Positions 27,967 to 34,709 of a stretch of DNA of 37,050 nucleotides are shown one piece after another. The translations under genes and the position numbers were made by a program. The notes beneath the pieces are model-generated. The model was given only the letters and a program-made list of their open reading frames with translations, was not told the origin of the DNA and did not search any database. Numbering within the stretch: the stretch's first letter is position 1; each line of letters opens with the position of its first letter. Origin of the DNA: an uncultured Monoglobus sp. (GTDB lineage: Bacteria > Bacillota > Clostridia > Monoglobales > Monoglobaceae); the NCBI GenBank assembly GCA_947585115.1, contig CANPWW010000018.1:1-37050 (forward strand), given 5' to 3'.

Positions 27967-30744
<2,778 letters not shown>

Positions 30745-30778
30745 ACACGGACATAATATAAAATCAAGAGGTGATCAA

Positions 30779-31892
30779 GTGATAGCATTCGATGAATACA
30801 AGCTCGGGCTTGAAAACATGCAAAAAGATATTACGGAACTGAGGGATTCACTTTAACCTGGCCGCGCTGAGCGACGAGATAGCAGCCCTTGAGAAAGAGA
30901 GCTTCGAGCCCGATTTTTATTCCGACATGGAAAAGGCGGGGCGCACCCTTCAAAAAATAAAGGGCCTTAAAGACAAGGTCGCGGCCTTTGACGACTTGTA
31001 CTCAAAGTGGGAGGACCTCACCGCCCTTGTGGAGCTGGGCAACGAGGAGGAGGACGAGAGCCTGCTCGACGAGGTAAAGCCCGGATATAAGGAGCTCAGG
31101 CAGGCGATCGACGCCATGAAGCTGGACACGCTGCTCTCGGGCAAATACGACAGACTGAACGCCATAGTGACCCTGCACTCGGGCGCGGGCGGCACCGAGG
31201 CTCAGGACTGGTGCGAGATGCTTTACCGCATGTACAACATGTGGGCCGACCGCCGCGGCTTTAAAACCGAGGTCATAGACTATCTGGACGGCGAGGAGGC
31301 GGGCATCAAGAGCGTCACTTTTTCGGTGAGCGGTCTCAACGCCTACGGATATATGCAGTCCGAAAAGGGCGTCCACCGTCTGGTGCGCATATCCCCGTTC
31401 GATTCGGCTGCGAGACGGCACACGTCTTTCGCGTCCTGCGAGGTGGTGCCCGAGCTCGACGAGGAGCTGGACGTTGAGATAAACCCCGACGATCTGAGGA
31501 TCGACACCTACCGCTCAAGCGGAGCGGGCGGACAGCACATCAACAAGACCGAGTCGGCCATAAGGATAACTCATATTCCCACAGGCATTGTGGTGACCTG
31601 CCAGAACGAGCGCAGCCAGCACAAGAACAAGGAGACCGCCATGAAGGTCCTAAAGTCCAAGCTGGTGGAGATAGCCGAGCGCGAACAGAAGGACAAAATC
31701 GACGACTTAAAGGGCGTCCAGACCGAGATCGCGTGGGGCAGCCAGATACGCTCCTATGTGTTCCACCCCTACACAATGGTAAAGGACCACAGAACGGGCT
31801 ACGAGGTCGGCAACGTGAACGCGGTCATGAACGGCGACATCAACGGATTCATCAACGCCTACCTGAAGGCGAAATCCAAAGGCGAGATTTAA
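30779..31892 (+). CDS. prfB: Peptide chain release factor 2 (programmed +1 frameshift)
   Basis: RF2 ends translation at UGA and UAA. The gene opens at GTG 30779 (RBS AGAGGTGAT), encodes 25 residues (MIAFDEYKLGLENMQKDITE then LRDSL) and meets an in-frame stop. A +1 shift at CTT-TAA-C (30851-30857) continues with NLAALSDEIAALEKE to 31892, giving about 370 aa, the usual RF2 length. RF2 markers: SPF anticodon-like tripeptide (VRISPFDSAARRH), GGQ in [14 protein letters not shown], and the C-terminal MVKDHRTGYEVGN. Oddity: the shift-site stop is TAA, where autoregulated prfB genes nearly always have TGA, and the shifted codon is AAC (Asn) instead of GAC (Asp). prfA follows after 12 nt. Confidence 0.95.
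30841..30857 (+). promoter_or_regulatory. prfB programmed frameshift site with UAA
   Basis: GAGGG (30841-30845) is the internal SD-like stimulator; CTT (30851-30853) is the slippery Leu codon; TAA (30854-30856) is the zero-frame stop; the +1 frame resumes at AAC (30855-30857). The frames flanking the site were checked: 30779 to 30851 is 24 codons, and 30855 joins the frame ending at 31892. Confidence 0.9.
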
Positions 31893-31904
31893 AGGAGTTA
31901 ATAT

Positions 31905-32975
31905 ATGTTTGAAAAGCTTTCATTCTTAGAGGAGCAGTTCGAGGAGCTTGCGCGCAAGATCAGCGACCCCGAGGTCATAGCCGATCAGGAGACGTGGCGC
32001 AAGCTGTGTAAGGAGCATTCCGACCTGACCCCGATAGTTGAAAAATACAGAGAGTATAAAAAGAACAAAGAGACGATAGACGACGCGGCCGCAATGATGG
32101 ACGACCCGGAGACCGACAAGGAATTCCGCGAGATGCTCATGGAGGAGACCAAAGAGGCCAAGGCCAATATCGAGAAAATAGAGGAGGAGCTCAAGATCCT
32201 GCTGCTGCCCAAGGACCCCAACGACGACAAAAACGTTATGGTCGAGATCCGCGGCGGAGCGGGCGGCGACGAGGCCGCGCTGTTCGCGGGAGACCTCTAC
32301 AGGATGTATTCCATGTACGCCGACTCAAAGCGGTGGAAAACCGAGGTGCTGAGCCTTAATGAGATCGGCATCGGCGGCATAAAAGAGATAACGTTTATGA
32401 TAAACGGCGAGGGCGCCTACAGCCGCCTGAAGTTCGAGAGCGGCGTCCACCGCGTTCAGCGTGTGCCCGAAACCGAGTCGAGCGGCAGGATACACACCTC
32501 GACCGTGACCGTGGCGGTGCTGCCCGAGGTGGACGACGTGGAGGTCGAGATAAACCCCGACGATCTGGAGATCGACACCTACCGCTCAAGCGGTGCGGGC
32601 GGCCAGCATATCAACAAGACCGAGTCGGCCATAAGAATAACCCACAAGCCCACGGGCATCGTGGTGACCTGCCAGGACGAGCGGAGCCAGCACAAGAACC
32701 GCGAGGCGGCCATGAAGATGCTGCGCTCAAGACTGTACGACAAGATGGAGCAGGAGCGCAACGCGGCGATCGCGGCCGACAGAAAGAGCCAGGTGGGAAC
32801 CGGCGACCGCAGCGAGCGCATCAGGACATACAACTACCCCCAGGGCAGAATGACCGACCACAGGATCGGCCTGACGCTGTATAAGCTGGAGCAGATATTA
32901 AACGGCGACCTTGACGAGATCATCGACGCCCTTATAACCACCGACCAAAGCGAAAAACTGAAACGCACAGAATAG
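31905..32975 (+). CDS. prfA: Peptide chain release factor 1
   Basis: RF1 ends translation at UAG and UAA. The 356-aa protein has the PxT recognition tripeptide as PET in [20 protein letters not shown] in [14 protein letters not shown], and [18 protein letters not shown] near the C-terminus. AAAGGAG precedes ATG 31905, 12 nt after the prfB stop. Over the GGQ domain it is almost the same as the adjacent prfB at both protein and DNA level (see findings). The stop is followed 5 nt later by repeat island 4; no prmC gene follows, unlike many Firmicutes. Confidence 0.97.
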
Positions 32976-32980
32976 TGTTG

Positions 32981-33184
32981 CCTCCTCCCGGGAGGAGGTG
33001 TCAGGCGTAAGCCTGACGGAGGTGGGAACATAGCGAATAGGGCGGGCGGATAATATCCGCCCCTACGGGGTTGATGCAATCCGCGGAAATTTCGCCAAAC
33101 TTGTAGGGGCGGCAATCTGCCGCACGTGCCTCGCCCTCCTTTAGGAGGGAGAGGTGGCGCCGAAGGCGACTGAGAGGGAGGGGA
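32981..33184. repeat. Mosaic palindromic repeat island 4
   Basis: Inverted module A (32981-33026: palindrome, GTCAGGC-GTAA-GCCTGAC hairpin, GGAGGTGGG) is followed by two inverted heptamers (AACATAG, CGAATAG; 33027-33040). Two module C copies stand head to head: GGGCGGATA-A-TATCCGCCC then CTAC (33044-33066), and GTAGGGGC leading into GCGGCA-ATC-TGCCGC (33103-33123). Last comes a module B-like unit (33131-33184) with GCCCTCC-TTTA-GGAGGGA, a GGCGCC-GAA-GGCGAC arm and a purine-rich end GAGAGGGAGGGGA that may supply the RBS of the next gene. Confidence 0.85.
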
Positions 33185-33194
33185 ACAACATATC

Positions 33195-34709
33195 ATGAAA
33201 ACACTTTTACTCACAAACAAAACATCCGATCTGCAAACGGCGGCGGATCTTATTCGGTCGGGACAAACCGTGGTTTTCCCGACCGAAACGGTTTACGGCA
33301 TCGGCGCCGACGCCAAAGACCCCGCGGCCGTTAAAAAAATATTTGAGGCAAAGGGCCGTCCGTCGGACAACCCTTTGATCGTGCATGTTTTTGACAAATC
33401 CCAAATTTCCGACATAGCCGCCGAGGTGCCCGAGGACGCGCAAAAGCTGATCGACGCCTTCATGCCCGGCCCGATAACGGTCATATTAAAAAAACGCTCC
33501 GATATCCCGAGCGAGGTGACGGCGGGGCTTGACACAGTGGGCATACGCATGCCGTCAAACAAAACCGCGGCTGAGTTCCTGCGTCTCTGCGGCAGACCTG
33601 TCGCGGCGCCCAGCGCCAATATTTCCGGAAAGCCCAGCCCCACGCGGTTCGAGCATTGCGTCGAGGACATGGACGGCAGGACGGCGGCGATAATTGACGG
33701 CGGCCCCTGCGATGTGGGCATCGAATCGACCGTTATCGACATGAGCGGCGAGCCGATCATATACCGACCGGGCCGCGTGAGCCGCGGTCAGATCGAACAG
33801 ACGCTTGGCAAAAAGGTGAGCCTTGCCGCCTCTTTAAAGGACGGCGAAAGGCCCAAGTCTCCGGGGCTCAAATACAAGCACTATTCCCCGAAGGCGAAAG
33901 TTGTGATCATAAAAGGCACCCTCGACGAGGCGGCAAACTGCGTCAACTCGCAGACAAAGCCGACGGGCGTCATTTTGTTTGATGAGATATTAAAGGAGAT
34001 AAAGCCTAAGCTCAAAGAGGGCGTGATCTGCCTGTCTCTGGGCGGCGTAAACAAGCCCGACGAGGCGGCCGCGGCCCTGTTCGCCGCGCTGCGCAGAATG
34101 GACGAGTTGGGCGCGGAGATCGTTTTCGCACCCGAGATACCCGACACCGACAGGTGGGCGGGCGTCCGCAACCGCCTCTACCGCGCCGCCGGAAATGAGG
34201 TGCGCGAGGCTTCCGAGCTTGCCGAAAGCGAGAGATCGGGCGTTGAAACTCCGATAAAAAATGTTTTGTTTGTTTGTTCGGGCAATACCTGCCGCAGCCC
34301 GATGGCCGAGGGGCTGTTCAATTATTACGCGAAAGAGCGCGGCATGAGCGTTTCCGCCAAGTCGGCGGGGCTGTTTGTGTTCCCCGGCTCAAAGGTTTCA
34401 GAAAATTCGGTCAAGGCGCTCGCGGAGCTTGATATTGACATAAGCGGCCACGAGCCGACGCAGCTCGATCTTGGCCTGATCGGCGGCGCGGACTTGATAC
34501 TCGCCATGTCGGGCAGCCACAAGAGCGCGATTTGCGCGGCGGCGCCCGAGGCGAAGAATAAGACCTTCACCCTCAAAGAATACGCGGGCGCAGTCGGAGA
34601 AATTTCCGACCCGTTCGGCGGCGGCATTCAGATATATAAAAGCTGCATGCTTGAGATAAAGGACTGCGTCAAAAAAATTATCGCGAGGCTTGACGATCAT
34701 GAAAATTAA
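33195..34709 (+). CDS. TsaC/Sua5 threonylcarbamoyl-AMP synthase fused to YwlE-like arginine phosphatase
   Basis: This 504-aa protein combines two enzymes. Residues 1 to about 205 form the YrdC domain (TVVFPTETVYGIGADA, KGRPSDNPLIVHV, RMPSNKTAAEF, APSANISGKPSPT), which makes threonylcarbamoyl-AMP for tRNA t6A. Residues about 206-340 are the Sua5 linker and domain, including SPGLKYKHYSPKA. Residues about 355-504 are a low-molecular-weight phosphatase with the P-loop CSGNTCRSP (C361, R367) and general acid D472 in SDPFGGG. T365 matches the Thr that gives B. subtilis YwlE its phosphoarginine preference. In B. subtilis ywlC and ywlE are separate genes of one cluster. The start ATG 33195 is preceded by a GGGAGGGG tract 10 nt away that belongs to repeat island 4. 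The end overlaps rimI by 11 nt. Confidence 0.92.
   Translation: MKTLLLTNKTSDLQTAADLIRSGQTVVFPTETVYGIGADAKDPAAVKKIFEAKGRPSDNPLIVHVFDKSQISDIAAEVPEDAQKLIDAFMPGPITVILKKRSDIPSEVTAGLDTVGIRMPSNKTAAEFLRLCGRPVAAPSANISGKPSPTRFEHCVEDMDGRTAAIIDGGPCDVGIESTVIDMSGEPIIYRPGRVSRGQIEQTLGKKVSLAASLKDGERPKSPGLKYKHYSPKAKVVIIKGTLDEAANCVNSQTKPTGVILFDEILKEIKPKLKEGVICLSLGGVNKPDEAAAALFAALRRMDELGAEIVFAPEIPDTDRWAGVRNRLYRAAGNEVREASELAESERSGVETPIKNVLFVCSGNTCRSPMAEGLFNYYAKERGMSVSAKSAGLFVFPGSKVSENSVKALAELDIDISGHEPTQLDLGLIGGADLILAMSGSHKSAICAAAPEAKNKTFTLKEYAGAVGEISDPFGGGIQIYKSCMLEIKDCVKKIIARLDDHEN

What the first reader, a model, noticed from the sequence alone, without database searches (positions are those of the whole stretch)
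30841..30857. prfB frameshift site uses UAA rather than UGA
The site reads CTT-TAA-C. RF2 autoregulation normally depends on UGA because only RF2 reads it; UAA is read by RF1 and RF2. Here prfA lies 12 nt downstream, so a UAA sensor could respond to both release factors and set the output of a two-gene operon. The stimulatory GAGGG is also 5 nt from CTT instead of the 3 nt seen in E. coli.
Basis: partly seen in the sequence, partly recalled or inferred. Interest (0 to 1): 0.78.

Follow-up and report, generated by a model that had tools for sequence, protein, structure and literature searches.

The report
Release-factor gene frameshift with changed stop
In a family of gut bacteria, the built-in stop signal that throttles production of one protein-release factor has changed so that the other release factor can also, and in one genus apparently only the other can, read it, in a gene pair that makes both factors.

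Summary
In detail: prfB needs a +1 frameshift at CTT TAA C (30851-30857), GAGGG lies 5 nt upstream, and prfA starts 12 nt after prfB. It is not an error: all 11 Monoglobus prfB sites read have it (12 genomes searched), including a single-contig genome.

TAA alone is known: 1.4% of motif genomes in Prince et al. 2025. The 5-nt spacing is ordinary: 34 of 50 sampled phylum sites share it.

Two things look new. (1) In the window's order TAA is the rule: 31 TAA, 5 TAG, 7 TGA, 1 lost in 44 loci read, with prfA after prfB in 44 of 44. Of 60 other families sampled, 0 have it. (2) All 5 prfB sites of one related genus read CTT TAG C, an RF1-only stop; Prince et al. found none in 8,164 genomes. There, UAG ends core genes, and RF1 and RF2 keep their recognition motifs.

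Best reading: a prfB-type sensor rewired from RF2-only to either factor (TAA), then to RF1-only (TAG), heading an RF2-RF1 gene pair. Frameshifting, regulation and coupling to prfA are inferred. Drift of a tolerated codon is the main rival.

The parts
27967..30744 (+). secA, gene before prfB in the apparent transcription unit
   Evidence: ORF; NCBIfam PRK12904.1 1227 bits, cutoff 814
30768..30776 (+). Shine-Dalgarno sequence GAGGTGATC for the prfB start
   Evidence: sequence
30779..30856 (+). prfB zero-frame leader, 25 codons from GTG, ending at TAA
   Evidence: sequence; similar peptide across the family
30841..30845 (+). internal SD-like stimulator GAGGG, 5 nt before CTT
   Evidence: sequence; same register in 34 of 50 phylum sites
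30851..30857 (+). shift site CTT TAA C; UAA in the A site is the sensed stop
   Evidence: sequence; TAA in 31 of 44 order loci
30855..31892 (+). prfB +1-frame body (RF2, SPF and GGQ motifs), TAA stop
   Evidence: the only RF2 match in this assembly, which is 90% complete
31893..31897 (+). AGGAG, SD of prfA, in the 12-nt gap
   Evidence: sequence
31905..32975 (+). prfA (RF1, PET recognition motif, GGQ)
   Evidence: NCBIfam TIGR00019 556.9 bits, cutoff 423; motif

Best explanation
This is a prfB +1 programmed frameshift whose sensed stop codon has been changed. SHOWN from sequence: RF2 with its N-terminal helix cannot be made without a +1 shift at CUU URR C; the stop is UAA across the family and UAG in one of its genera; prfA follows prfB. 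INFERRED: ribosomes that translate the 25-codon leader pause at the stop with the internal SD paired to 16S rRNA; if release is slow, tRNA-Leu slips from CUU to UUU and RF2 is made. With UAA, either RF1 or RF2 shuts the gate; with UAG, only RF1 does. INFERRED, weaker: because prfA is the next gene (gap -1 to 84 nt in 42 of 44 loci), ribosomes that pass the gate reach the prfA start and also protect the message, so the gate sets RF1 output too. The unit would then work as a joint release-factor thermostat (UAA), or as an RF1 feedback loop that also sets RF2 (UAG). My odds: +1 frameshifting used, 0.95; gate answers to RF1 as well as RF2, 0.5; gate also sets prfA output, 0.3.
For: Reading frames and motif. 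TAA in 31 and TAG in 5 of 44 order loci; prfA downstream in 44 of 44. 0 of 60 sampled phylum families, and 0 of 39 other named loci with at least 800 nt downstream, have prfA there. The five TAG loci form one supported group (98*) inside the TAA clade on a SecA+RF2 tree (RF2 alone, agrees with weaker support); three diverged TAG lineages differ at 36-47% of silent A/G sites per pair. RF1 PET and RF2 SPF motifs are intact in all five. TAG ends 21 of 122 long ORFs in two of these genomes, and ends mnmG, leuC, trpS and other known families at their profile ends. No plus-strand terminator-like or promoter-like match lies between prfB and prfA in the window. A CUU UAG C shift in a release-factor gene is on record in Mimivirus (PMC3521657, passages).
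Against: No expression, profiling or frameshift data for any of these organisms. Adjacency needs only one change on the SecA+RF2 tree, so its association with the changed stop is close to n = 1; seven order loci with adjacency keep TGA and one lost the site. One phylum family has TAA without adjacency (L188, CTT TAA G). In the TAG genus, agreement of three lineages is what drift would often give (45 of 117 comparable silent sites also agree). Two of the three TAG lineages checked (L104, L110) have an ATG in the +1 frame 16 codons after the stop, with an A-rich leader, so internal initiation is not excluded there; the third (L107) has none before the ATG corresponding to window 30927. prfA has a recognisable SD of its own in most loci, which weakens the need for coupling. 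Prince et al. cite evidence that TAA is mostly read by RF2 in most bacteria. The 0 of 391 result came from a pattern unsuited to this phylum and says nothing.
Confidence: 0.5

Rival explanations
1. Drift of a tolerated codon. TGA, TAA and TAG before C give Asp, Asn and Ser at the RF2 junction, all acceptable there; in this order the demand for RF2-specific sensing is relaxed, the shift runs at a fixed sufficient level, and stop identity carries no regulatory meaning.
For: Stops vary TGA/TAA/TAG and one family lost the site. TAG agreement in three lineages is no better than at silent sites (45 of 117 agree). Removing autoregulation had no detectable fitness effect in P. fluorescens (abstract of PMC13245932).
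Against: Elsewhere TGA is 98.6% of 8,164 (PMC12421855), so drift is not generally tolerated. TAA is kept in 29 of 29 TAA loci of f1 and f5 compared, while 0 of 64 conserved K/E/Q codons kept their third base across them; but those rows were picked for having TAA, the five TAG loci of the same family being set apart, and a change in the stop also changes RF2, so this contrast is weak.
Confidence: 0.32
2. Ordinary RF2 autoregulation: UAA is read mainly by RF2, so the TAA site works like a TGA site, and only the TAG genus is odd.
For: Prince et al. [quoted passage not shown] RF2 has its SPF motif in every RF2 that displayed.
Against: It cannot explain TAG, which only RF1 should read, nor the concentration of TAA and TAG in the order with prfA adjacent.
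Confidence: 0.14
3. In the TAG genus UAG is not a plain stop: a suppressor tRNA or an RF2 of widened specificity reads it.
For: No tRNA list was made for these genomes.
Against: UAG ends core genes at their profile ends and 21 of 122 long ORFs; RF1 is present with PET and RF2 keeps SPF. In-frame reading of UAG would not give RF2, which is in +1.
Confidence: 0.03
4. In the TAG genus RF2 is made by internal initiation after the stop, not by frameshifting.
For: An ATG lies in the +1 frame 16 codons after the stop in L104 and L110.
Against: L107 of the same genus lacks it; neither leader holds a GGAG-type SD; the zero-frame leader, the internal SD and the slip site are conserved; RF2 so made would lack its first helix.
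Confidence: 0.02
5. Sequencing or assembly error at the stop codon.
For: Most named relatives are metagenome bins.
Against: Same base in 11 Monoglobus genomes including a single-contig one, TAA in 8 genera of the family, and TAG in 5 bins of one genus in three different flanking contexts.
Confidence: 0.01

Closest known systems
prfB +1 programmed frameshift (RF2 autoregulation), E. coli type CUU UGA C
   Same: Zero-frame leader of about 25 codons, internal SD, CUU_U slip site, C after the stop, RF2 in the +1 frame
   Different: Stop is UAA (UAG in a related genus) instead of RF2-specific UGA; prfA is the next gene
The 1.4% of prfB motifs with TAA in Prince et al. 2025 (PMC12421855)
   Same: CTT TAA as premature stop
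   Different: There described as in multiple phyla and not broadly fixed in particular clades; here in 28 of 33 loci of one family, the other five having TAG, which they found in 0 of 8,164. Adjacency to prfA is not discussed in the parts I read
Class-I release factor genes of Mimivirus (CUU UAG C) and Megavirus (CUU UAA C), PMC3521657 (passages)
   Same: Same heptamers at a frameshift site in a release-factor gene
   Different: Eukaryote/archaea-type factor in giant viruses, with a second, readthrough stop; no RF1/RF2 split of labour

Membership tests
prfB +1 programmed frameshift motif | Short zero frame with in-frame stop; RF2 body in +1 frame | tested here: met
prfB +1 programmed frameshift motif | Slip site CTT T before the stop and C after it | tested here: met
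   CTT TAA C at 30851-30857
prfB +1 programmed frameshift motif | Upstream SD-like stimulator, in the register usual for the phylum | tested here: met
   GAGGG, 5 nt; same in 34 of 50 phylum sites; the bacteria-wide consensus of Prince et al. is AGGGGG at 3 nt
prfB +1 programmed frameshift motif | Premature stop readable by RF2 | tested here: met
   UAA in the window; not met in the TAG genus (5 of 5), by the standard specificities of RF1 and RF2
RF2-specific autoregulation | Premature stop is UGA, read by RF2 alone | tested here: not met
   TAA in the window; 31 TAA, 5 TAG, 7 TGA, 1 lost in 44 order loci
RF2-specific autoregulation | Frameshifting occurs and falls as RF2 rises | not testable with these tools
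   needs reporters or ribosome profiling
prfB-prfA transcription unit | prfA next downstream on the same strand, no terminator between | tested here: met
   gap 12 nt; prfA downstream in 44 of 44 order loci; no plus-strand terminator-like match between in the window; transcription itself not tested

The most novel reading that the evidence does not exclude
In the TAG genus the prfB frameshift senses RF1, not RF2, and gates an RF2-RF1 transcription unit: RF1 would control its own synthesis and that of its partner through a frameshift in the partner's gene. The TAA family would be the either-factor intermediate on the way from the ancestral RF2-only sensor.
Probability: 0.3. Interest if true: 0.85.

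Novelty: new variant of a known kind. Interest (0 to 1): 0.62.

Why it matters
The prfB frameshift is the textbook bacterial frameshift, and its use of an RF2-readable stop in every genome surveyed is a main comparative argument that it exists for RF2 autoregulation (PMC12421855). A family with TAA throughout and a genus with TAG is a natural test of that argument. It also offers a candidate for release-factor-1 feedback: the authors of PMC8073009 (2021) wrote that they knew of no report of RF1 autoregulation. One reporter experiment with three stop codons in a laboratory strain would show which factor the gate senses.

Tried and rejected
1. Canonical-motif search of the class (AGGGGGTNTCTTTARC, 0 of 391 genomes): rejected as uninformative, because sampled phylum sites mostly have TGAGGG in another register. 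2. A better pattern, TGAGGGNNTMNCTTTARC, hit G000 and one other of 299 genomes; the other (G475, contig 7, L218) shows no release factor by tblastn and is taken as chance. This pattern covers only 25 of 50 known phylum sites, so TAA or TAG outside it may be missed. 3. Spacing as an oddity: rejected. 4. SD pairing energies: -8.4 kcal/mol for the window and TAG sites, -7.0 for a common phylum form, -12.6 for an E. coli-like one; not used in the argument. 5. Third-base conservation as proof of selection on the stop: kept only as weak evidence, since the same bases code Asp/Asn/Ser in RF2 and the rows were chosen by their stop. 6. Other phyla were not sampled: the one attempt failed. 7. The supplement of Prince et al. 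was not read; Baranov et al. 2002 is not held.

Rows left out of counts: in the order, 51 genomes were searched, 45 had an RF2 match and 44 were read; G026 is cut at residue 43. In the phylum, 60 of 179 searched genomes were fetched, one per family, picked from a match list that the tool cut short. Of 80 named loci, 48 were used as outside controls (9 of them too short downstream) and 32 were left out as members or duplicates of the order. That the 48 lie outside the order was judged from missing adjacency and lower identity, not from taxonomy, so for them 'no adjacency' is partly circular; the 60-family sample is free of this. On the RF2 tree several of these loci (L049, L050 and others) fall among families of the order with weak support. 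The SecA+RF2 tree left out 10 of 64 rows for lack of SecA, among them all six phylum outgroup rows, so it is unrooted.

Full report
OBSERVATION. The window's prfB begins at GTG 30779 behind GAGGTGATC (30768-30776), runs 25 codons, and meets TAA at 30854-30856 directly after CTT; C follows. The rest of RF2 is in the +1 frame, from AAC 30855 to the stop at 31890-31892; its part from 30927 scores 499.5 bits against the NCBIfam prfB model (cutoff 370). RF2 with its N-terminal helix therefore needs a +1 shift. In the window no start codon occurs in the +1 frame until ATG 30927, which lacks an SD-like leader. prfA (RF1; 556.9 bits) starts 12 nt after prfB. An RF2 search of the assembly (90% complete) finds only this prfB and this prfA.

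NOT AN ERROR, AND WHO IT IS. Named relatives at 84-99% identity are titled Monoglobus or Clostridia bins. All 11 prfB sites read in the genus show CTTTAAC in the right frame, including one genome that is a single contig of 2.76 Mb; the 12th genome, G011, gave no prfB match.

STOP IDENTITY IN THE ORDER. Of 51 genomes of the order, 45 gave an RF2 match at 1e-85 and 44 could be read at the shift site. Result: TAA 31, TAG 5, TGA 7, site lost 1. By group (the tool's family and genus codes): family f1 has TAA in 28 of 28 loci of genera g1-g8 and TAG in 5 of 5 of g9; f5 has TAA (1 genome); f6 TAA (2); f2 TGA (6); f3 TGA followed by T (1); f4 an in-frame RF2 without the site (1). On a SecA+RF2 tree of 54 rows, f1 with f5 is one group (99*), the TAG loci are one group (98*) beside genus g6 inside it, and the f6 TAA pair is elsewhere, set apart from f1 and f5 by TGA families (unrooted; support is weaker on RF2 alone). 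If TGA is ancestral, the likely order is TGA to TAA to TAG in f1, with a separate TGA-to-TAA change in f6.

THE TAG GENUS. The five genomes correspond, by contig number and site sequence, to bins titled uncultured Ruminococcus sp. RUG13671, RUG12270, RUG11189, RUG14314 and RUG10604 (L033, L034, L036, L037, L097). Three are near-identical in protein, so there are three diverged lineages; between them 36-47% of silent A/G third positions of K, E and Q codons differ. RF2 keeps SPF and RF1 keeps PET in all five (what these motifs do is established knowledge, recalled). UAG is a working stop there: in 197 kb of two genomes it ends 21 of 122 ORFs of at least 150 aa. Of 18 TAG-ended ORFs scanned, mnmG, leuC and trpS score above their cutoffs and end where the profile ends; a YycF-type regulator, a polyamine transporter ATPase and a MobT-type relaxase also end at or near the profile end, the regulator and the relaxase below their equivalog cutoffs; five have partial or weak matches and seven none at the thresholds used. 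By the standard specificities, only RF1 can release at this shift site. Against a simple story, L104 and L110 have an ATG in the +1 frame 16 codons after the stop, with A-rich leaders and no GGAG; L107 does not.

prfA ADJACENCY. In all 44 order loci read, prfA lies downstream of prfB on the same strand: gap -1 to 84 nt in 42, 151 in one and 458 in f5. One genome from each of 60 other families of the phylum showed no prfA downstream (0 of 60), with 49 TGA, 1 TAA (L188, CTT TAA G) and 10 without a recognised site. Among 39 further named loci with at least 800 nt downstream, 26 had TGA, 13 no recognised site, and 0 had prfA; these were set apart partly because they lacked it, so they count for less. 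Non-TGA stops thus concentrate where prfA is the next gene, but adjacency does not force the change (f2 and f3 keep TGA), and adjacency needs one change only on the tree, so there is little independent replication. No plus-strand terminator-like or promoter-like match lies between prfB and prfA in the window.

SPACING. GAGGG 5 nt before CTT is the common form in the phylum sample: 34 of 50 sites have it in the same register. This part of the finding is ordinary for the phylum. Prince et al. give a consensus approaching AGGGGG three nt before CTTT across bacteria (PMC12421855, Results part 1).

SELECTION OR DRIFT. Across the 29 TAA loci of f1 and f5, 0 of 64 conserved K/E/Q codons kept one third base, while the stop has A in all 29. 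Those rows were chosen by having TAA, but the whole family is 28 TAA to 5 TAG to 0 TGA. In the window, called ORFs have GC3 0.73, so base composition does not favour TAA. Yet in the +1 frame the same bases decide Asp, Asn or Ser in RF2, so protein constraint could explain the conservation. For the TAG genus, three lineages agreeing is unremarkable (45 of 117 silent sites agree).

MECHANISM. Shown by sequence: an obligatory +1 shift for the whole protein; a stop not specific to RF2; prfA next. Inferred: the shift competes with release by whichever factor reads the stop, as established for UGA and RF2. With UAA both factors compete; with UAG only RF1. Inferred and weaker: passage of ribosomes through prfB raises prfA translation, by coupling (overlap TAATG in G037, G013 and G014; gaps of 2 to 25 nt in 29 of the other 41) or by message protection. 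Together these give a release-factor thermostat for both genes.

LITERATURE. Prince et al. 2025 (PMC12421855; abstract, Results part 1 of 2 and passages): 98.6% TGA, 1.4% TAA, no TAG in 8,164 genomes; [quoted passage not shown] no compelling programmed frameshift in prfA. Lim et al. 2026 (PMC13245932; abstract, passages, section 8): describes UGA, 818 species. Antonov et al. 2013 (PMC3711429, passages) gives the prfB consensus YTT_TRA_C. PMC8073009, 2021 (passages): no reports of RF1 autoregulation to the authors' knowledge. PMC3521657 (passages): CUU UAG C and CUU UAA C in Mimivirus and Megavirus release-factor genes, with experimental support for recoding. PMC5009743, PMC5373646 and PMC6321510 were seen in passages only and add background. 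Searches for a bacterial UAG prfB site, for RF1 autoregulation, for prfA with prfB in operons, and for Monoglobus with release factors (listings) showed no earlier report; they cover only openly licensed PMC papers.

VERDICT. The given feature is real and conserved but of a recorded kind. The extension (a family with TAA, a genus in it with TAG, all with prfA adjacent) is, as far as these searches show, new, and it turns an assumption about the textbook frameshift into something testable.

Noticed in passing
L104, L105, L106, L107, L110 (shift sites): CTT TAG C, an RF1-specific stop, in prfB of all five genomes held of a related genus.
   Followed up: yes
L188: CTT TAA G in prfB of another family of the phylum, without prfA downstream: a counterexample to the link with adjacency.
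   Followed up: partly
L133 (G047): One family of the order (one genome) has lost the shift site and reads RF2 in one frame although prfA stays adjacent.
   Followed up: no
L127-L132 (family f2): prfA appears to start with TTG in all six loci of this family, against ATG in 37 of the other 38 order loci.
   Followed up: no
window 33195-34709: TsaC/Sua5-type synthase (TIGR00057, above cutoff) fused to a low-molecular-weight phosphatase-like domain (below cutoffs).
   Followed up: no
window 32976-33194: Stretch between prfA and the next gene with a palindromic CCTCCCGGGAGG and similar G+C-rich motifs (by eye).
   Followed up: no
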